Positions 824-8,351 of a stretch of DNA of 11,171 bases are shown in pieces. The notes beneath the pieces are model-generated. The model was not told the DNA's origin and made no database searches. It saw nothing but the letters and a program-made list of their open reading frames with translations. The stretch spans positions 1 through 11,171 of the forward strand of contig WJIO01000305.1 of the NCBI GenBank assembly GCA_014730235.1. The letters are read 5' to 3'. The position numbers and the translations under genes were made by a program. This DNA comes from Candidatus Poribacteria bacterium (GTDB taxonomy: Bacteria; Poribacteria; DTPJ01; WJIO01). Position 1 is the first letter of the stretch, and every line of letters begins with the position of its first letter.

Positions 824-946
824 TGGTTCTTCCGGGTTTAGCGTGCTAATAATTTGGAAATTTCCTCAGCTTGTCATTCCTGCGAAGGCAGGAATGATAG
901 CATAAAGAAGTCTCTTATCTTTACCACACTGAATCCGAAAGAGCCA
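824..946 (+). repeat. Palindromic MITE-like element, copy A (123 bp, single-hairpin form)
   Basis: The left end TGGTTCTTCCGGGTTTAGCG and the right end (ACCACACTGAATCCGAAAGAGCCA region, 923-946) are imperfect inverted repeats. Between them is one internal hairpin built on CATTCCTGCGAAGGCAGGAATG. It has the same orientation as the 166-bp copy at 3816-3981 but lacks about 43 bp of the centre, i.e. one hairpin and the inter-hairpin spacer. It lies between the predicted promoter and the start of the dehydratase gene. A reading frame that runs through it and beyond (854-1069) encodes SACHSCEGRND from repeat sequence and is not considered a gene. Confidence 0.85.
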
Positions 947-1071
947 ATTATATTTGCATTCTATGAATCTGTTCGGTGCAATGCCCGGGTTGAATTAATG
1001 ATAGAAGATTTTTCAGATAACACATTTATTATAATGCTGGAAAATACTGAATTTAAGCAGGGAGGATAAAG

Positions 1072-2265
1072 ATGAAAATTACTGGAGTTCGTTTTATCCG
1101 TGTTAGTGGAAAATGTTTACATGAAGGTGCTTTTAGCGAAGAGCGATTAGTACGTCCCATTGATATATACCCGGAATTTAAATCTCAGCCAACTTACTGG
1201 CCCGTTTATAGAAAAAATGAAGGTCCGCCATATCCTGTAAGCAGTCTATTTATGTTTATTGATACTGACGAAGGTATAAGCGGCATGTATGGCTCTATTG
1301 GCATGAACGAATGTCGCATCATATCCGGCCTGGTTTCCGGTATACTCAAGGGAGAAAATCCCCATGCTGTGGAACGTATATGGGATAAGATGTATCGTCA
1401 TGCTATACATGGCCGAAAAGGTGAGACCATGATGGCCATAAGCAAAATTGATCTTGCATTGTGGGATTTAAAGGGAAAACTACTGGATGCTCCCGTATAT
1501 AAACTTCTGGGCGGCCCAAGTCGTGAAAAAACCCGCGCTTACGCATCAATGCTGGGTTATTCCATAGAGCCTGAAATGGCGGCTAAAAGGGCAAAAGAAG
1601 TAGTTGAACAGGGATATACAGCAACTAAATGGTTCTTCCGTCACGGCCCCACAGATGGACCAGAAGGCATTCGTAAAAATCTGGAGTTGATAAGGACCAT
1701 AAGAGAAGCCGTAGGGTATGATGTGGATATAATGTTTGATGCATGGAGTAGTTGGGATGTTCCATACACTCAACGCATGGCGGCGTTAGCATCGGAATAT
1801 AATCCCTGGTGGTTTGAGGAGCCGGTTCTTGCCGACATGATACCTCAATATGCGGAACTGCGTCGCTCAATACCAAATGTTTTGATTTCCGGTGGTGAAC
1901 ACGAATATACACGCTGGGGAATAAAAGCCCTTCTGGATGCTGGTGCGGTGGATATTCTACAGCCAGATCCTACATGGGCCGGTGGCTTGACTGAAATGAG
2001 TAAAATTTGTGCTCTGGCTTCCGCACATGGTATCCCTGTTATACCTCATCATGGAGGAATAGCTTCAACTCATTTGATAGCTTCTCAAACTATTACAACA
2101 TGCCCCATACAGGAATGGTTGATACAGGCGGGAATTATAGATAACGTCTTTATGAAACATAAGCTCTTACCGATTAACGGCTATATCCAACTACCCGAAA
2201 GACCGGGTTTGGGTATGGAACTTGACGAAGATGCAATTGAATCCAGGGAAGAGATAAAAATGTAA
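1072..2265 (+). CDS. Enolase-superfamily sugar-acid dehydratase, L-rhamnonate-dehydratase-like
   Basis: This 397-residue protein of the mandelate racemase/muconate lactonizing enzyme type most resembles L-rhamnonate dehydratase. Such cytoplasmic Mg-dependent enzymes abstract the proton next to a carboxylate and eliminate water to give a 2-keto-3-deoxy sugar acid. Residues 1-125 form the capping domain and the rest the TIM barrel. Predicted Mg ligands are Asp223 (MFDAW), Glu249 (WWFEEP) and Glu276 (SGGEHE). His326 (IPHHGG) and Asp299 (LQPDPTW) form the expected His-Asp dyad, at the same 27-residue spacing as I recall for RhmD, and the GEH motif with His277 is also rhamnonate-dehydratase-like. 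The PVYKLLGG and PERPGLGMEL segments are family hallmarks, and the length is typical. The start is fixed by AGGGAGG at 1059-1065, 6 nt before ATG. The exact acid substrate is not resolved, because substrate-contact residues in the 20s and 50s loops differ from E. coli RhmD. Confidence 0.9.
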   Translation: MKITGVRFIRVSGKCLHEGAFSEERLVRPIDIYPEFKSQPTYWPVYRKNEGPPYPVSSLFMFIDTDEGISGMYGSIGMNECRIISGLVSGILKGENPHAVERIWDKMYRHAIHGRKGETMMAISKIDLALWDLKGKLLDAPVYKLLGGPSREKTRAYASMLGYSIEPEMAAKRAKEVVEQGYTATKWFFRHGPTDGPEGIRKNLELIRTIREAVGYDVDIMFDAWSSWDVPYTQRMAALASEYNPWWFEEPVLADMIPQYAELRRSIPNVLISGGEHEYTRWGIKALLDAGAVDILQPDPTWAGGLTEMSKICALASAHGIPVIPHHGGIASTHLIASQTITTCPIQEWLIQAGIIDNVFMKHKLLPINGYIQLPERPGLGMELDEDAIESREEIKM

Positions 2266-2271
2266 AACCTT

Positions 2272-2410
2272 TGGCTTTTCCGATTTGGGTGTGGAAATGT
2301 AAAAAAATGTCTAATAATGAAAAAATATACTCTATTGTCATTCCTGCTTTTGCAGGAATGACAAGCTGAGGAAATTTTCAATTATAACCACGCTAAAACC
2401 GGAAGAGTTA
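2272..2410 (-). repeat. Palindromic MITE-like element, copy B (diverged, between convergent genes)
   Basis: This copy is in the opposite orientation to copy A. Its outer end starting TGGCTTTTCCGATTTGGGTG at 2272 is a diverged right arm. The hairpin TTGTCATTCCTGC-TTTT-GCAGGAATGACAA (2335-2364, perfect 13-bp stem) is intact. The segment 2365-2410, containing AATTATAACCACGCTAAAAC, is the left arm, with a decayed tip (AAGAGTTA instead of AAGAACCA). It begins 7 bp after the dehydratase stop and ends 14 bp before the stop of the convergent radical SAM gene. The hairpin could therefore also serve both transcripts as a 3' stem-loop, although no clear T-tract follows it. Confidence 0.8.
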
Positions 2411-2424
2411 TATTTTAAATACCA

Positions 2425-3672
2425 CTAAACTACAGAATTAGAAGAAAACATGGGATTACCGGGAACAGAAACAGGGCCACAGCAGCAAATGTAATTTTCT
2501 TTATTCATACCAAGTTTAATCGAAAGTTCTTTCCACATCTTATGTGTTTCCATACATATTGCTATCGGTATATTTTCGTTTATCTTCTGTATTTCATTCA
2601 GGAAAAAGTTATATATTTCCAGACGTAAATTATGGGGAAAAATTTGCTTAGGACTGTTTTCAATTCTCCTTACATTATCTCCCGCCATCTCTTCTACAAC
2701 CTGTCTGTATTTATCATCGAATAGGAAAATATCCATAGAGTTTACAATCTGATCCGCGCTCATCCAACCCAGTACATCCATTGTTATGAGGTCTGGTTTA
2801 ACTTTTGAGAACATACGCTTGATCATTTCCGCATTTTCATCCCGCCAGTTTTTGATTGGTATAATTGGCGAAAATCTGAAACGCACAGTATATCCGGCCT
2901 TCTGGCATAGCTCAGCCGCATGAATTCTTTGATCCATAGAAGGTGCTTTCTTTTCAATTTTTTCTGCCACTGTTTCACAGGATAGAGTCCAGTTTATAAT
3001 TGTATGACCTGCATGATCCAGTTCCAGAAGGTGTTCTATGTTATCGCTTTTTGTATATAACATCAGGTATTTATCTTTTTGTCGGGCGAAATAATTCACC
3101 AACAATTCAGATGCACCATATTCTGGTTCGAAACATATGGTATCTGTCTGGTTATCATATTTATAGAGCTGCTGTTTCTCCCGCTTTATCAGAGGGTTTA
3201 TATATTCAACAAAATCCTCCAGATTAAGCATAATATTCACAAAATCTTTTACATGGCAGTAATCGCAGGCATGATAACATCCCCAGGCCGAATGAATTTC
3301 ATATGCTGATTTGCATACACCGTTACCAAAAGTGGACGAATTTCTGAAGGTATAAGGACCAGTACCGAGAAGATGATAAGCCGATAGGGATGGATATATC
3401 CTGTTTAGTTTCTTAAATTCTTCTTCAGGCAAAAATCGAAATGTATTAAAAATCATTATGGGATCATTCTCGCGCTTTAATTCCCCGGTTCGTTTAGATG
3501 ACATATCTAACCAGTTGTTCTCTTCCACTGCAAATGCAAGATTTTCATCATTCACAATATCAATATTATCAGTCTGGATACATGTCATAATTCTATCCAG
3601 CCGCCTTATTGCTTTTTCATCATCATAGACGCTTTTATGGATATATATCCTGGGTGGCTTCATGTTCAGCAT
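2425..3672 (-). CDS. SPL-family (spore photoproduct lyase-like) radical SAM protein
   Basis: This 415-residue protein resembles spore photoproduct lyase, a radical SAM enzyme that repairs a thymine dimer in DNA. The N-terminus (KPPRIYIHKSVYDD) matches SPL proteins. The CYHACDYC segment supplies the CxxxCxxC ligands of the 4Fe-4S cluster (Cys132, 136, 139 from the start used here). NYFARQKDKYLMLYTKSD, LLELDHAGHT and KAGYTVRFRFSPIIP follow SPL order. Cys180 (TICFEPE) lies where SPL carries its catalytic hydrogen-donor Cys (inference). The C-terminus has ICMETHKMW and a CCC triplet seen in SPL-like relatives. The frame is open to 3741, but AGGAG (3679-3683) sits 6 nt before the internal ATG at 3672, and a strong promoter overlaps the upstream codons, so 3672 is chosen. 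True SPL activity is uncertain: no sporulation gene is visible, and many family members have unknown substrates. Confidence 0.85.
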   Translation of the reverse strand: MLNMKPPRIYIHKSVYDDEKAIRRLDRIMTCIQTDNIDIVNDENLAFAVEENNWLDMSSKRTGELKRENDPIMIFNTFRFLPEEEFKKLNRIYPSLSAYHLLGTGPYTFRNSSTFGNGVCKSAYEIHSAWGCYHACDYCHVKDFVNIMLNLEDFVEYINPLIKREKQQLYKYDNQTDTICFEPEYGASELLVNYFARQKDKYLMLYTKSDNIEHLLELDHAGHTIINWTLSCETVAEKIEKKAPSMDQRIHAAELCQKAGYTVRFRFSPIIPIKNWRDENAEMIKRMFSKVKPDLITMDVLGWMSADQIVNSMDIFLFDDKYRQVVEEMAGDNVRRIENSPKQIFPHNLRLEIYNFFLNEIQKINENIPIAICMETHKMWKELSIKLGMNKENYICCCGPVSVPGNPMFSSNSVV

Positions 3673-3719
3673 CTTAATCTCCTGAATTCTATGTATATGA
3701 TTTATTCCAGTGGTATCGA

Positions 3720-3748
3720 AATATATCAATTCTAAAATCAAATGTCAA
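3720..3748 (-). promoter_or_regulatory. Predicted sigma70-type promoter for the SPL-like gene
   Basis: On the minus strand TTGACA (3743-3748) and TATATT (3720-3725) are separated by exactly 17 bp. Transcription would begin near 3713, giving a leader of about 40 nt with the AGGAG ribosome site. The promoter overlaps the most upstream in-frame ATG (3741), which argues against that start. Confidence 0.6.
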
Positions 3749-3815
3749 TAATGAATCCCAAGCATAAATTTTACATCTCTGTGTTATTGCGAATAACGAA
3801 GTAACAAATAAAGTT

Positions 3816-3981
3816 TGGTTCTTCCGGGTTTAGCGTGGTTATAATTGAAAATCCTTTCAGCTTGCCATTCCTGCGAAAGCAGGAATCCAGCAGATCCCCA
3901 TAAAGACTAGATTCCTGCTTTCGCAGGAATGACAGCATAAAGAAGTTTCTTATCTTTACCACACTAAACCCGGAAGAGCCA
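3816..3981 (+). repeat. Palindromic MITE-like element, copy C (166 bp, full two-hairpin form)
   Basis: This is the best-preserved copy. The left end TGGTTCTTCCGGGTTTAGCG and the inverted complement of the right end agree over about 23 bp with two mismatches. Inside are two hairpins that are reverse complements of each other, ATTCCTGCGAAAGCAGGAAT (3867-3886) and ATTCCTGCTTTCGCAGGAAT (3911-3930). There is no transposase coding capacity. No convincing target-site duplication is visible in the flanks. The SFLRKQESS peptide encoded on the minus strand here is a repeat artefact. Confidence 0.92.
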
Positions 3982-4118
3982 GAGTTTTCACGGACTTAAA
4001 TTTTATGCTTCGTAATGAATCAGAATAAAAAAGTATGGAATTCCAAAGAAATTCATGTTAATCTATCTCAGATTTAGCCACGAAAAATCACAGGAATATG
4101 TTTTGAAAGGTTGGATAA

Positions 4119-5015
4119 ATGGAAGATATAACAATAAGAAATTGGAAAGAAGGCGATGACGAGAATATATACAAACTTTTTGACAGAACATGCCGATGGC
4201 TGTCTAACGAAGCTTATGCAAATAAATTCAACGATAAGGGATTGAAGCCGGAAGGTATAATTTTAGCTGAAAAAGATGGTCTTATAATCGGTCATGTTAT
4301 GGGCAACTGGACGGATATTATGTATGAAGGGAAGCCCACAAAATTTGCCGGTATAGGTCAGGTTATGGTAGATGAAAACTTTCGGGGATATGGTATCGGT
4401 AAGGCCATGCTAAAAAAGATAATAGATTACCATATATCCGGCAACTGCAGGGGGATAATTCTTTGGACTCAAAAAACTCTAGTTCCAGCCTATCCCATGT
4501 ACCAGAAATTAGACTTTCAGCCTGTAGTAAATAGAGCTTTCTACAGATTTCGACCAAAAACCACAACATCTTCCCTTTCGGTAGAACCATATAGACCATC
4601 AATGGGTAAAGAAGCAGAGAAAGTCAGGATAGAATGGATGCACAGTTGTTTTCCTGTGGGTGTAAACAATATGAAACCAGGATCAGGTAACTGCTGGGTA
4701 TTATGTAAAAATAAAAAGGTCATAGGTTATTTTTGCAAGTGGGAAAATGATGGAGTGGCTACTATAAATAGTGCTGTATCCTTTATTGAAAATGCTTCTG
4801 AGATGTGCAGTGCTGTTATTGGTTTTCTGAAGGCCTACGGTTACAAAGAGGTTGTATGGCAGACCTGTGCAGGAAGTATCTGGCAGAAGAAATTAAATAA
4901 TCTCGTTCAATACGAGGAAGAGCTTTTAGCCGATGTGAGAATGTGCAAATCCATTGGTTCACCTATAAACATCGAGAGATTACTGCCAGAATTTGATGGA
5001 TGTTCAACATGGTAA
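4119..5015 (+). CDS. GNAT-family N-acetyltransferase with an extra C-terminal domain
   Basis: This 298-residue protein has an N-terminal GNAT domain (about residues 4-145), which transfers an acyl group from acyl-CoA to an amine. Motif A is clear: IGQVMVDENFRGYGIGKAML, with the CoA-pyrophosphate loop R89-G-Y-G-I-G94. Motif B is PMYQKLDFQPV, with the frequent Tyr128. Single-domain GNATs are about 150-180 residues. The remaining 150 residues (SVEPYRPSMGKEAEKVRIEW to the end) form a second region with WVLCKNKKVIGYF and ATINSAV segments, possibly a degenerate second GNAT fold as in two-domain family members; I do not recognise it with certainty. The substrate is unknown. A weak AAAGG ribosome site lies 8 nt before ATG. 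The gene stands alone and is flanked by inverted copies of the palindromic element. Confidence 0.88.
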   Translation: MEDITIRNWKEGDDENIYKLFDRTCRWLSNEAYANKFNDKGLKPEGIILAEKDGLIIGHVMGNWTDIMYEGKPTKFAGIGQVMVDENFRGYGIGKAMLKKIIDYHISGNCRGIILWTQKTLVPAYPMYQKLDFQPVVNRAFYRFRPKTTTSSLSVEPYRPSMGKEAEKVRIEWMHSCFPVGVNNMKPGSGNCWVLCKNKKVIGYFCKWENDGVATINSAVSFIENASEMCSAVIGFLKAYGYKEVVWQTCAGSIWQKKLNNLVQYEEELLADVRMCKSIGSPINIERLLPEFDGCSTW

Positions 5016-5034
5016 AATAATTTTGCTCTTCAGT

Positions 5035-5048
5035 ATTACCACACTAAA
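5035..5048 (+). repeat. Tip fragment of the palindromic element (right end only)
   Basis: ATTACCACACTAAAC, 20 bp after the acetyltransferase stop, matches the right arm of copy C (TTTACCACACTAAACC) for 14 bases and then diverges. It is best read as a relic of another insertion or of a deletion or recombination event at this spot. Confidence 0.45.
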
Positions 5049-5106
5049 CATCTAAGCAATTTCAAGAAAATCTATTCAATTCTTCTCTTAATAGACGAAG
5101 CCCATC

Positions 5107-5138
5107 CCTCCCCTATTAAGGGGGTTAGAGGAATTTTT
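5107..5138 (+). terminator. Possible rho-independent terminator after the acetyltransferase
   Basis: An imperfect hairpin pairs CCTC and CCCC with GGGG and GAGG around a TATTAA loop, followed by AATTTTT (5132-5138). It lies about 90 nt after the acetyltransferase stop. The stem is interrupted by a GTTA bulge and the T-run is short. A CCCTCCCC...AAGGGGG hairpin of this kind is also a common dispersed intergenic sequence, so the terminator role is tentative. Confidence 0.3.
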
Positions 5139-5163
5139 AGAGCGTATTAAAAACAAAAGATTA

Positions 5164-5321
5164 AGGTTCTTCCGGGTTTAGTGATAAGAAGCTTCTTTAT
5201 GCTGTCATTCCTGCGAAAGCAGGAATCTAGTCTTTATGGGAATCTGCTGGATTACTGCTTTCGCAGGAATGGCAAGCTGAGGGGATTTTCAATTATAACC
5301 ACGCTAAACCCGGAAGAACCA
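5164..5321 (-). repeat. Palindromic MITE-like element, copy D (158 bp, inverted relative to copy C)
   Basis: The reverse complement aligns with copy C along its whole length and differs by a few substitutions and one 8-bp deletion (TGGTAAAG, missing after GTTTAGTG near 5182). Both internal hairpins are present, at 5207-5226 (perfect ATTCCTGCGAAAGCAGGAAT) and 5251-5270 (one mismatch, ATTACTGC). The outer base is A instead of T at 5164. Together with copy C it brackets the acetyltransferase gene in inverted orientation. Confidence 0.92.
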
Positions 5322-5375
5322 GTATTTTTAACTAACTGGTTAATCATGCCTAGCGTTTACCCTCTCTATAGATTT

Positions 5376-5570
5376 TCAGTAAGTAATCGAGATTTTGCCA
5401 AAACCACAAGTTTCTATAGAAGCTCTGATAAACTCGCCAAGGGGATCACGTCTTAGTTTATAATCAACTGCTACTACTCTGTTTACTTTTCGCTTTGTAG
5501 CACTCTTATAATTCCATTTCCATTGACAATCATGACATTTGATGTTACGCTTATAATTATTATAAGATAT
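5376..5570 (-). pseudogene. Possible decayed gene fragment (64 codons open, no start codon)
   Basis: The 332-bp gap between copy D and the next inverted-repeat element (5322-5623) holds a minus-strand frame that stays open for 64 codons to TGA at 5376. It has protein-like composition: NIKCHDCQWKWNYKSATKRK (a CxxC pair that could be half of a zinc site), then VNRVVAVDYKLRRD and PLGEFIRASIETCGF. It has no ATG and an in-frame TAA immediately upstream, so it would be the 3' end of a broken gene. I do not recognise the family. A chance open frame is a real alternative. Confidence 0.25.
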
Positions 5571-5623
5571 TTATATATGCCAGTTAACAAGTTTTGGTAA
5601 AAGGACTCATATGTATTATAGAA

Positions 5624-5716
5624 AGTAATCGTTAAAAAATGGATATAATTTAGTTGTCATTTACCATCATTATAGAGATATTTTCTAAACAAATTTTCTA
5701 TTTTTTAACGATTACT
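5624..5716. repeat. Second inverted-repeat element (93 bp), upstream of the propeller-barrel gene
   Basis: AGTAATCGTTAAAAAA (5624-5639) and TTTTTTAACGATTACT (5701-5716) form a perfect 16-bp terminal inverted repeat. AGAA directly abuts both outer ends and could be a 4-bp target duplication, but the flanks are A-rich so this is weak. The element ends 15 bp before the ATG at 5732, so it forms the leader of that gene. It could equally be a large regulatory stem-loop, but related arms at 7627-7644 and 7741-7756 suggest a dispersed element. Confidence 0.65.
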
Positions 5717-5731
5717 AGAAAGAGAAAAATT

Positions 5732-7618
5732 ATGAATAAAAAGGTTGTTGTTTTTCTGTTTTTGATTATCCTTCCTTCGATTTGCTATTCTGCGGATGTA
5801 ATTAAATTTGATATGGAATTTGGCGGAAAAGGTGCAGGTCAGGGAGCTTTTGGAAAAGATATAAAGATGGCTTTTGATGATGAAGGTAATATATATATAA
5901 GTGATAAAGATAACAAGATGCTGCATAAGCTGAACTCAGAAGCCAGATTCCTGATGCAGATACCTGAAGATACAGAAGATAAAACTCTATTTAATACCCC
6001 TGGTGATATTACCGTTGATAAGCAGGGAAATATATATGTAGCCGATTGGTCAAGTAAATATATTGAGGGAACAGAAAATCCCAGACTTCATCTTTATGGG
6101 CCATGTGTATATAAATTCAGCAGTACCGGTTTACTCCTGAATACTTATTTCATAGACAGCGCATCCCCCAAGCCCCGCACTGTGATTCCGGGTATTTTCG
6201 TGGTGGATGAAAAAGGTCAATATGGCTGGGCTTTAAGACCAAAGGGATATGACAGGGCTTTATTAGTAACGGTGGATTCTCAGAAAAATCTATATATACT
6301 GGATGTGGAAAATAATATTATACATAAATATAACCCAGAAGGTGAAAGAGTTGAGAATTTTGGAAATTATGGCTCTGGCGGCGGCGAAATGGATTCTCCC
6401 GGTGACATGGCTGCTGATAATGAAGACAACTTGATAATTGCCGACACCGGTAATAATCGCATAATAAAATTTGATGGTAGTGGGGAATATATCCTGAACT
6501 TTGGATCTAAAGGATATGGAACAAGCCAGTTTATAAAACCTGTATCCCTGGCTGTTACAAAATCAAACGAAATACTGGTAAAAGACTCATCCAGCTTTGA
6601 CCGAATCGGCCTTAAACACTCCTTTGGCAGTGAAAGAAGAACTTTGGGAGGTGAATACGCTATACAGCCAGTTAAGGATTCAGAGTTAATAATGCTTGAG
6701 GAGCGTATTCTTAGGTTGGAAGAAGCTCTGGAGGAGGGTGAAGACGCTGAAAAAGCAAAGGAAAAACTGCTGGCAAAAAGCTCAAGATATTACACAGTTA
6801 TTGAGCGAATCCAGAGATTCAGCGATACTGGCGAATATCGGGATAAAGCCATATATAAGATTGATAAGACTCACAGAGAATTGAATGATTTAGAGTTTCT
6901 AACCCTTGATCCCATGGGCAGGATATATCTCATGGACGCTGATCGGCAGGTGATCAGGAGATATATGATAGATGGTTTTACACCGCGCTTGTCTGAAATT
7001 GAAGCCACATATACAGCCAGAACAGAAAACTCAGATCAGAGTTTTCTGGAGGATTATGGTGACATTGATGAAAAGACAGACCTGGAAGACCGAAGGAGCA
7101 ATCTGGCCATAAGTCAGGCTTTGCTTATGAATTATGACATTTCAGAAAGATGGAATTTTTCTCTCAGGGATACCCACCTATACGCCAAACGGGATAATAC
7201 ATACGAAACACCGCCAAAACCCGAGGATAACTACGATTACTTTGATAACGGCTGGGATAACACTCTGGATTTGAATATGAAATATATCGCGAATCCAGAT
7301 CCCTATAAATACCGGGAGATGAATTTTTATTCTGAAGTTTTGACTGGTTCTACCGAATATACAAGAGAAGCCATGTTCTCAAACGTAAATCTTGAAAGAA
7401 GCGAGCGCGAAGGTGATACAACAGGTATAGTTTTTGGCGCGGATATTGACATACACCATAATATTAACGTAGGTCTCGAATACCTGAGACTAAAACCGGG
7501 CATGATGGGTAGTAATTTTACCACAAGGCTTTACGACGTATCCGGCGATCTGTATCAGGTATCCAGCAGTTATAACAGCACCAATATAGTTGTGGGTGAG
7601 TTGAATATCAAGTTTTAG
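5732..7618 (+). CDS. Exported NHL-repeat beta-propeller with predicted C-terminal outer-membrane barrel
   Basis: This 628-residue protein starts with a signal peptide (MNKKVVVFLFLIILPSICYSA, cleavage after about residue 21). Residues 28-290 carry NHL-type blades recognisable as FGGKGAGQGAF, DDEGNIYISDKDN, DKQGNIYVADW and GDMAADNEDNLIIADTGNNRIIKFDGSGEYILNFGSKG. A charged helix (about 320-350, LEERILRLEEALEEGEDAEKAKEK) interrupts the propeller. A further blade-like strand (about 388-415, DPMGRIYLMDADRQVIRRY) follows. From about residue 420 the sequence turns into alternating amphipathic strands (RWNFSLRDTHLYAKR, YREMNFYSEVLTGSTEY, NINVGLEYLRL) and ends in LNIKF, consistent with an outer-membrane barrel and its C-terminal Phe. 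The frame is open from a TTG at 5654, but the signal peptide supports ATG at 5732, preceded by purine-rich AGAAAGAG. Propellers usually bind protein or polysaccharide; the ligand is unknown. Confidence 0.75.
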   Translation: MNKKVVVFLFLIILPSICYSADVIKFDMEFGGKGAGQGAFGKDIKMAFDDEGNIYISDKDNKMLHKLNSEARFLMQIPEDTEDKTLFNTPGDITVDKQGNIYVADWSSKYIEGTENPRLHLYGPCVYKFSSTGLLLNTYFIDSASPKPRTVIPGIFVVDEKGQYGWALRPKGYDRALLVTVDSQKNLYILDVENNIIHKYNPEGERVENFGNYGSGGGEMDSPGDMAADNEDNLIIADTGNNRIIKFDGSGEYILNFGSKGYGTSQFIKPVSLAVTKSNEILVKDSSSFDRIGLKHSFGSERRTLGGEYAIQPVKDSELIMLEERILRLEEALEEGEDAEKAKEKLLAKSSRYYTVIERIQRFSDTGEYRDKAIYKIDKTHRELNDLEFLTLDPMGRIYLMDADRQVIRRYMIDGFTPRLSEIEATYTARTENSDQSFLEDYGDIDEKTDLEDRRSNLAISQALLMNYDISERWNFSLRDTHLYAKRDNTYETPPKPEDNYDYFDNGWDNTLDLNMKYIANPDPYKYREMNFYSEVLTGSTEYTREAMFSNVNLERSEREGDTTGIVFGADIDIHHNINVGLEYLRLKPGMMGSNFTTRLYDVSGDLYQVSSSYNSTNIVVGELNIKF

Positions 7619-7626
7619 TATAAAAT

Positions 7627-7756
7627 TAATCGTTAAAAATGGATGTTACTTGTTTGTCATTCTTGCTTTTGCAGGAATGACAAGCTGAGAGAATTTTTAA
7701 ATTGCTACCACACTAAACCCCAAAGAACCAAATATTTTTCATTTTTAAATGATTAC
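7627..7756. repeat. Second-family element, degenerate, carrying a half copy of the first family
   Basis: The left arm TAATCGTTAAAAATGGAT (7627-7644) matches the start of the 93-bp element at 5624 (one A fewer), and similarity continues to TTGTCATT. The right arm ATTTTTAAATGATTAC (7741-7756) resembles ATTTTTTAACGATTAC at 5700-5715. The interior is occupied by the half copy of the first repeat family at 7654-7730. With the 5624-5716 element it brackets the propeller-barrel gene in direct orientation. Confidence 0.4.
7654..7730 (-). repeat. Palindromic MITE-like element, copy E (left half only)
   Basis: The hairpin TTGTCATTCTTGC-TTTT-GCAGGAATGACAA (7654-7683, one G-T pair) is followed by AGCTGAG and the left arm, ending CACTAAACCCCAAAGAACCA. 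It is in the same orientation as copies B and D. No right arm is recognisable upstream; the sequence there instead matches the second repeat family. The hairpin lies 36 bp after the stop at 7618 and could act as a 3' stem-loop. Confidence 0.8.
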
Positions 7757-7784: not shown

Positions 7785-8351
7785 ATGCCGCTGGTAAAAT
7801 GTCCCGAGTGTGATGCAGAAATAAGCGACAAGGCTGTGGTTTGTCCCAAATGCGGCTACCCTTTGAGTTCCAAAGCTAATATGCTTTACGTTGGTCGTAA
7901 ATTTATGTGGGGTTACGAATGGAAAACAAAATCCCAGATTTTCGGCTGGCCCCTGGTTCATATTGCCATAGGCAGAAGTAAAGAGACTGGCAAGTTAATG
8001 GGGGCAAAAGGCATAATTGCTATAGGGCAATTCGCCGTTGGCCTGATAACCATAGCACAGTTTGGTTTTGGACTGCTTTTTGGTTTCGGTCAATTTGTGG
8101 CCAGTCCCATGTTTGTCATTGCCCAGTTTGCCGTTGGCGGTTATTTTGGATTAGGGCAGTTTGCGATTGGAGTAACAGCCGTCGGTCAATTTGCTGTAGG
8201 ACATTATGTACGGGCCCTGGTTGGTTTTGGTAACCATGTATGGAGTAAACATATTAAAGATCCACAGGCCATAGGCTATTTTTCAAACTTATGGCAATCG
8301 ACTAAAAGTCTTGATTTTATCAGTGTTATTAAAGGGATATTAAATTTGTAG
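7785..8351 (+). CDS. Zinc-ribbon protein with a hydrophobic GQF(A/G)VG repeat domain
   Basis: This 188-residue protein has an N-terminal zinc ribbon (Cys6, Cys9, Cys20, Cys23; CPECDAEISDKAVVCPKCGYPL) joined by a basic linker to a repeat domain. Residues 76-139 contain no charged residue. They repeat GQF/AQF at a 10- or 11-residue period, with Gln at 82, 92, 103, 114, 125 and 135, mostly followed by A/G-V/I/F-G. The segment could be a set of short membrane helices or a tightly coiled beta-solenoid; the sequence alone does not decide. The C-terminus (residues 150-188) is ordinary and soluble-looking. GGAGAG at 7774-7779 precedes ATG. The stop is 16 bp before the potassium channel start, so the two are probably co-transcribed and the protein may be membrane-associated or linked to channel function (inference). 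I do not recognise a named function. Confidence 0.8.
   Translation: MPLVKCPECDAEISDKAVVCPKCGYPLSSKANMLYVGRKFMWGYEWKTKSQIFGWPLVHIAIGRSKETGKLMGAKGIIAIGQFAVGLITIAQFGFGLLFGFGQFVASPMFVIAQFAVGGYFGLGQFAIGVTAVGQFAVGHYVRALVGFGNHVWSKHIKDPQAIGYFSNLWQSTKSLDFISVIKGILNL

What the first reader, a model, noticed from the sequence alone, without database searches (positions are those of the whole stretch)
824..7730. MITE-like palindromic repeat family with dRS3-like hairpins: five copies and a tip fragment in 7 kb
Copies at 824-946, 2272-2410, 3816-3981, 5164-5321 and 7654-7730, plus the tip at 5035-5048, share ends beginning TGGTTCTTCCGGGTTTAG. They carry one or two hairpins of the form ATTCCTGCGAAAGCAGGAAT. 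This 20-bp ATTCCT-N8-AGGAAT layout mirrors the Neisseria dRS3 repeat (ATTCCC-N8-GGGAAT), known as an integration target for filamentous phage. Here the hairpins sit inside a larger non-coding element with its own 23-bp terminal inverted repeats, in one- and two-hairpin forms. No transposase is in the window, so mobilisation must be in trans.
Basis: partly seen in the sequence, partly recalled or inferred. Interest (0 to 1): 0.7.

Follow-up and report, generated by a model that had tools for sequence, protein, structure and literature searches.

The report
Mini-transposons carrying REP hairpin passengers
This bacterium's genome is littered with several hundred tiny gene-less transposons that appear to be moved by an ISL3-family transposase, and most carry inside them a palindromic hairpin (a "CGTC REP", the class that includes Neisseria dRS3) found across many bacterial phyla, for which no mobilising enzyme was known.

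Summary
The repeat family is real and genome-wide: 524 terminal sequences (at most 1 mismatch, 0 in the control) and 468 hairpins in 5.53 Mb. The elements start GG and end CC, flanked by an 8-bp target duplication (z = 21). Sequenced ISL3 insertion sequences have such ends and the same duplication, and an ISL3 transposase remnant in this genome lies next to a matching end. So these are ISL3-type MITEs, mobilised in trans; empty sites inside other repeats support insertion. The hairpin fits the published CGTC-1 REP family (dRS3 in Neisseria); over 90% of hairpins lie within MITE ends. In two-hairpin copies the spacer points either way equally often (11:11), and the one-hairpin form is 44 bp shorter (the hairpin spacing), so the hairpins look like recombination or slippage points. 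Filamentous-phage integration is not supported: the strict dRS3 pattern is nearly absent and no IS110-type recombinase was found. The same hairpin sits in MITE-like elements with unrelated ends in other bacteria, suggesting that CGTC REPs spread as MITE passengers.

The parts
825..945 (+). ISL3-type MITE (family A), one-hairpin form (a-H-b); target duplication AACTATAT / AATTATAT (7 of 8)
876..895 (.). CGTC-1-type REP hairpin ATTCCTGCGAAGGCAGGAAT
2273..2409 (-). family A element joining a c-type arm (2273-2316, about 90% identical over 48 bp to the end downstream of the ISL3 transposase remnant on contig C391) to an a-type arm; one hairpin at 2340-2359; no target duplication found
3758..4013 (.). 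family C element (CCAAGCATAAAATTTATG ends) enclosing the A copy; flanked by exact AATGAATC (3750-3757 and 4014-4021)
   Evidence: flanks read from sequence
3817..3980 (+). ISL3-type MITE (family A), two-hairpin form (164 bp), nested in family C
3867..3930 (.). two CGTC-1-type REPs (3867-3886 and 3911-3930, 44 bp apart) with CCAG/CTAG tails facing the spacer and tags outward
5037..5049 (+). possible terminal remnant of family A (TACCACACTAAAC)
   Evidence: short, low confidence
5165..5320 (-). ISL3-type MITE (family A), two-hairpin form (156 bp) with 8 bp missing from the b arm; no target duplication
   Evidence: (I25)
7626..7756 (.). chimera: family B left arm, hairpin (7659-7678), family A arm (to 7729), family B right tip; explained by A inserted into B followed by a hairpin-to-hairpin deletion

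Best explanation
Family A is a non-autonomous ISL3-type MITE. An ISL3-family transposase supplied in trans recognises its roughly 22-bp ends GGYTCTTCCGGRTTYAGTGTGG and inserts it into AT-rich intergenic DNA, duplicating 8 bp of target. Inside the MITE sits a passenger, one or a facing pair of CGTC-1-type REP palindromes (TGTC-ATTCCTGC-N4-GCAGGAAT-CCAG), which has been amplified with it to several hundred copies. Once inside, the REPs act as rearrangement points: deletion between the two palindromes (44 bp apart) turns 164-bp copies into 120-bp copies, exchange between them inverts the spacer, and deletion between hairpins of nested elements builds chimeras such as 7626-7756. Shown: ends, 8-bp duplications, empty sites inside other repeats, ISL3 identity of such ends elsewhere, REP features, length forms, spacer orientations, nesting. 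Inferred: active transposition in trans, the identity of the supplying transposase (only a 58-codon contig-edge remnant is assembled), and recombination or slippage as the cause of the hairpin-centred variants.
For: 8-bp duplication: 33 of 98 exact, mean identity 0.779 against 0.492 +/- 0.014 for shuffled flank pairs, z = 20.9; the next best length, k = 7, reaches z = 4.6. Genome-wide ends 268 + 256, control 0. ISL3 C-terminus PF01610 E = 1.9e-14 on contig C391, with a c-type end 300 bp downstream that matches MITE arms at 83-95% over 40-63 bp. Pirellulaceae L121: PF01610 C-terminus (E = 3.5e-9) running straight into CCCACACTAAACCCGGAAGAGCC. Three ISL3 elements in plasmids, one of them the closest relative of the C391 protein there, have ends GGTTC(A/T)TC... 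and exact 8-bp duplications CTAATGGT, CTTAAAAA, TAAAGAAA. Empty site in family C; A inserted in family B in L095 with ACATATCT/ACATATAT. REP features: tag TGTC 21 of 24, tail CCAG/CTAG 21 of 24, stem 8, loop 4, as defined in PMC3733652. 157 of 170 hairpins within or next to A or B ends. Spacer 11 forward, 11 reverse. 4 of 99 copies inside ORFs of 150 aa or more that cover 82% of the sample.
Against: No close relative carries the family, so no strain-level filled/empty pair exists (no other genome among 144 has more than one match, each with a mismatch). Two window copies (2273, 5165) show no target duplication. In the empty-site alignments only some of the filled copies score better with one duplication copy than with two. 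Whether the REP entered the MITE once or repeatedly is unknown.
Confidence: 0.88

Rival explanations
1. The hairpin is the primary mobile unit (a REP copied by a RAYT/HUH or other enzyme) and lands inside pre-existing MITEs, so the MITE is a target rather than a vehicle.
For: The same hairpin sits in families with unrelated ends (A, B; G003; G107) and alone in other genomes; the literature leaves open mobilisation of CGTC REPs by various transposases (PMC3733652).
Against: In this genome 157 of 170 hairpins are inside or next to MITE ends, most of the remainder in degraded arms; the only Y1/HUH gene (PF01797) is on C236, a contig without family A that may be contamination. It may still explain the original entry of the REP into each MITE family.
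Confidence: 0.2
2. dRS3-like attachment sites: the hairpins are targets for a filamentous phage or IS110/Piv-type recombinase that also causes the spacer inversions.
For: CGTC-1 REPs in Neisseria are dRS3, which Nf1 phage uses as target (PMC3898611; PMC3733652); equal spacer orientations would fit an invertase.
Against: PF02371 has no match in the genome; the strict dRS3 pattern occurs twice in 0.82 Mb and the Nf1 subtype never; no phage was seen at a hairpin.
Confidence: 0.04
3. Functional hairpin elements (terminators, mRNA stabilisers or RNase III sites) kept by selection, with mobility incidental.
For: Almost exclusively intergenic; stable folds, z = -12.4 and -3.2.
Against: Copies lie in divergent, convergent and co-directional gaps alike in the window; no Rfam match; the intergenic bias is also what purifying selection on insertions gives; nesting and chimeras fit selfish spread.
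Confidence: 0.1

Closest known systems
ISL3 insertion-sequence family (PF01610; e.g. ISAeme19-like element in L177)
   Same: Ends GGTTC(A/T)TC... and exact 8-bp target duplication; ISL3 tnp remnant in this genome next to a matching end
   Different: Family A has no gene; autonomous partner not assembled
CGTC-1 REPs / Neisseria dRS3 (Di Nocera et al. 2013, PMC3733652)
   Same: TGTC/CGTC tag, 8-bp stem beginning AT, 4-base loop, CCA tail, paired units with spacer
   Different: Here almost all lie inside MITEs; sixth base pair T-A instead of C-G, so the strict dRS3 pattern is not met
Neisserial intergenic mosaic elements (NIME)
   Same: Two hairpins with tails inward flanking a spacer; a gonococcal pilE fragment reads GTCATTCCCGCGAAAGCGGGAATCTAG...CTGGATTCCCACTTTCGTGGGAATGAC (PMC7593972)
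   Different: NIMEs are not reported, in the papers read, as enclosed by ISL3-type ends
Coxiella QMITE2 (PMC5896051)
   Same: A MITE that contains a REP
   Different: GTAG-type REP, target for IS1111, 7-11 nt duplications
CGTC-1 dimers of H. neapolitanus inside 41-bp palindromes (PMC3733652)
   Same: REP pair enclosed by a second palindrome
   Different: Enclosing palindrome not assigned to a transposase and not found without the REP

Membership tests
ISL3-derived MITE | Terminal inverted repeats of the ISL3 type (GGYTC...) | tested here: met
ISL3-derived MITE | 8-bp target duplication | tested here: met
   z = 20.9 at k = 8; ISL3 references also 8 bp
ISL3-derived MITE | No transposase gene; short; multi-copy; empty sites exist | tested here: met
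ISL3-derived MITE | Autonomous ISL3 element with the same ends in the same genome | tested here: inconclusive
   only a 58-codon remnant at a contig edge with one end
ISL3-derived MITE | Transposition in trans by ISL3 transposase | not testable with these tools
   needs an experiment
CGTC-1 REP | CGTC/TGTC/CCTC tag, 8-bp stem starting AT, 4-base loop, CCA tail | tested here: met
   against the definition in PMC3733652
CGTC-1 REP | No dedicated transposase flanked by the repeat | tested here: inconclusive
   one HUH gene, on contig C236; its flanks were not examined for REPs
Neisseria dRS3 (strict) | ATTCCC-N8-GGGAAT | tested here: not met
   2 against 121 ATTCCT-N8-AGGAAT in 0.82 Mb; definition from PMC3898611
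Neisseria dRS3 (strict) | Target of filamentous phage integrase (IS110/Piv type) | tested here: inconclusive
   PF02371 absent from a 92%-complete assembly
Correia elements | TATAG(C/T)GGATTA... ends, TA duplication | tested here: not met
   ends and duplication differ (definition)

The most novel reading that the evidence does not exclude
CGTC REPs, a cross-phylum class of palindromes with no known mobiliser, spread generally as passengers inside MITEs of many transposase families, and serve those MITEs as recombination joints through which arms are swapped and new chimeric MITE families are made.
Probability: 0.3. Interest if true: 0.7.

Novelty: new variant of a known kind. Interest (0 to 1): 0.5.

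Why it matters
How CGTC-tagged REPs (including Neisseria dRS3) multiply has been open, because no transposase is linked to them (PMC3733652). This genome gives a concrete case: the REP is amplified inside a MITE with an identifiable transposase family, and the same association with unrelated ends occurs in other bacteria. It also gives a natural collection of hairpin-centred deletions, spacer inversions and chimeras, suited to studying how palindromes reshape mobile DNA.

Tried and rejected
Filled/empty comparison with relatives: impossible, no relative carries the family; replaced by empty sites inside other repeats. Zn-ribbon PF14690 to find the N-terminus of the ISL3 protein: no hit. Rfam: no hit. 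IS110/Piv: no hit. HUH/Y1: one hit, on a contig that may be contamination. RNA covariation of hairpin and TIR in one-hairpin copies: hairpin stem almost invariant, TIR covariation only marginally above shuffles, so no claim of a conserved RNA is made. Correia element membership rejected on ends and duplication. The idea that the MITE arose by hairpin-to-hairpin deletion of an ISL3 element (C391 has tnp, then a hairpin, then a c-type end) was considered; the DNA between hairpin and end differs from the MITE arm, so it stays speculation.

Full report
Observation. The four larger copies are present where stated, with shared ends and hairpins. The feature is not local: the genome (5.53 Mb, 451 contigs) holds 468 ATTCCTGC-N4-GCAGGAAT sites with 0 in the reversed-pattern control, at least 40 scored copies of the 166-bp query and 524 matches to the terminal 18-mer with at most one mismatch, again with 0 in the control. 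In a 0.65-Mb sample of larger contigs 72 elements could be paired by both ends; the sample is somewhat enriched, so 'several hundred copies' is the safe statement.

Ends and target. Pairing ends by sequence alone in 0.82 Mb gave 99 pairs. Comparing left and right flanks for every length from 2 to 12, 8 bp stands out: identity 0.779 against 0.492 +/- 0.014 for shuffled flank pairs, 33 of 98 exact, z = 20.9 (k = 7 reaches z = 4.6, everything else is below 2). This fixes the ends at GG and CC. Targets are AT-rich; 4 of 99 copies fall inside long ORFs although such ORFs cover 82% of the sample. Empty sites exist inside other repeats: a family C element without A (L096) aligns with filled family C elements (for example in L063, L070 and L058) after removal of A and one duplication copy. 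One-copy and two-copy joins score differently in only part of these comparisons, so the 8-bp statistic is the stronger evidence.

Which transposase. The ends resemble those of ISL3 elements. Three tests: (1) the ISL3 fragment on contig C391, which also carries family A-type sequence (PF01610 E = 1.9e-14), is followed by an end that matches MITE arms over 40-63 bp, including window 2271-2316; (2) a pattern scan of other species found a Pirellulaceae ISL3 C-terminus running directly into CCCACACTAAACCCGGAAGAGCC; (3) three annotated ISL3 elements, among them the nearest relative of the C391 protein in the plasmid collection (61% identity), have GGTTC(A/T)TC... ends and exact 8-bp duplications. 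That establishes the kind of transposase; activity is inferred.

The hairpin. It fits the published definition of CGTC-1 REPs: tag CGTC or TGTC, 8-bp stem beginning with AT, 4-base loop, CCA tail (PMC3733652). Counts here: tag TGTC 21 of 24, tail CCAG or CTAG 21 of 24. The paper identifies CGTC-1 in Neisseria with dRS3 and states that CGTC REPs lack a dedicated transposase. A gonococcal pilE fragment printed in PMC7593972 shows the same paired layout. The strict dRS3 pattern is nearly absent here, so the correct name is CGTC-1-type REP, not dRS3. In this genome 157 of 170 hairpins lie between or next to MITE ends.

Rearrangements centred on the hairpin. Length peaks at 164 and 120 bp differ by 44 bp, the spacing of the two hairpins. 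The spacer is found in both orientations relative to the arms, 11 and 11 among a-b elements. Other cores replace the loop by long palindromes (141-bp form) or by further spacers. Family B (ends GTAATCGTTAAAAAATG, 5-6 bp duplication signal) carries the same hairpin; L057:4205 and window 7626-7756 each have one family's arm on one side of the hairpin and the other's on the other side, as expected if A inserted into B and the two hairpins then recombined. These are inferences from products, not observed events.

Beyond this genome. The hairpin occurs in 16 of 144 other genomes searched, within and outside the phylum, usually with the same tag and tail, but without these ISL3-type ends in numbers. 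In G003 (same phylum) 6 of 15 sampled copies lie in a roughly 153-bp element with unrelated ends, and G107 (another phylum) carries it between GGCTGTCC ends. Hence the REP is shared by MITE-like elements of different descent. Whether it entered each by its own mobility or by recombination is open.

Verdict. The thing is a MITE family of a known kind (ISL3-derived) with a REP passenger of a known kind; the combination, its scale and the hairpin-centred remodelling are the new part.

Noticed in passing
window 5625-5715; 7626-7756: Second MITE family B with ends GTAATCGTTAAAAAATG / CATTTTTTAACGATTAC and a 5-6 bp target duplication; 16 paired copies in the sample; transposase not identified.
   Followed up: partly
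window 3758-4013: Third palindromic family C (CCAAGCATAAAATTTATG ends) that nearly always encloses a family A copy at about the same site, as if C with A inside spreads as a unit; exact AATGAATC flanks here.
   Followed up: partly
L066:4150-4290, L070:6579-6719, L114:3131-3271: 141-bp form whose hairpin loop is replaced by the long palindrome CTTCAAGCTTTTTGAAAAAGCTTGAAG; further cores contain CTCTTATTCCTTTTTGCTC. Origin unexplained.
   Followed up: no
L046 (C342), L047 (C236): ISL3 transposase fragments on contigs with primase and XRE-type genes and no family A copies; possibly contamination in the assembly (4.8% estimated).
   Followed up: no
L119:5968-6154; L117:1589-1955: Other bacteria have short ISL3-ended elements enclosing different repeats (TTCGTGGTGAA-type, CCCCCCTTTG-type), so ISL3-type MITEs may commonly carry repeat passengers.
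   Followed up: no
L176:1189-1290: Immediately upstream of the Pseudodesulfovibrio profundus ISL3 element lies what looks like a short gene-less derivative with similar ends.
   Followed up: no
window 7785-8351: Zinc-ribbon protein followed by a repetitive glycine-rich region (GQFAVG-type repeats); next to it a potassium-channel-like gene and a mannose-1-phosphate guanylyltransferase-like gene (by eye, not searched).
   Followed up: no
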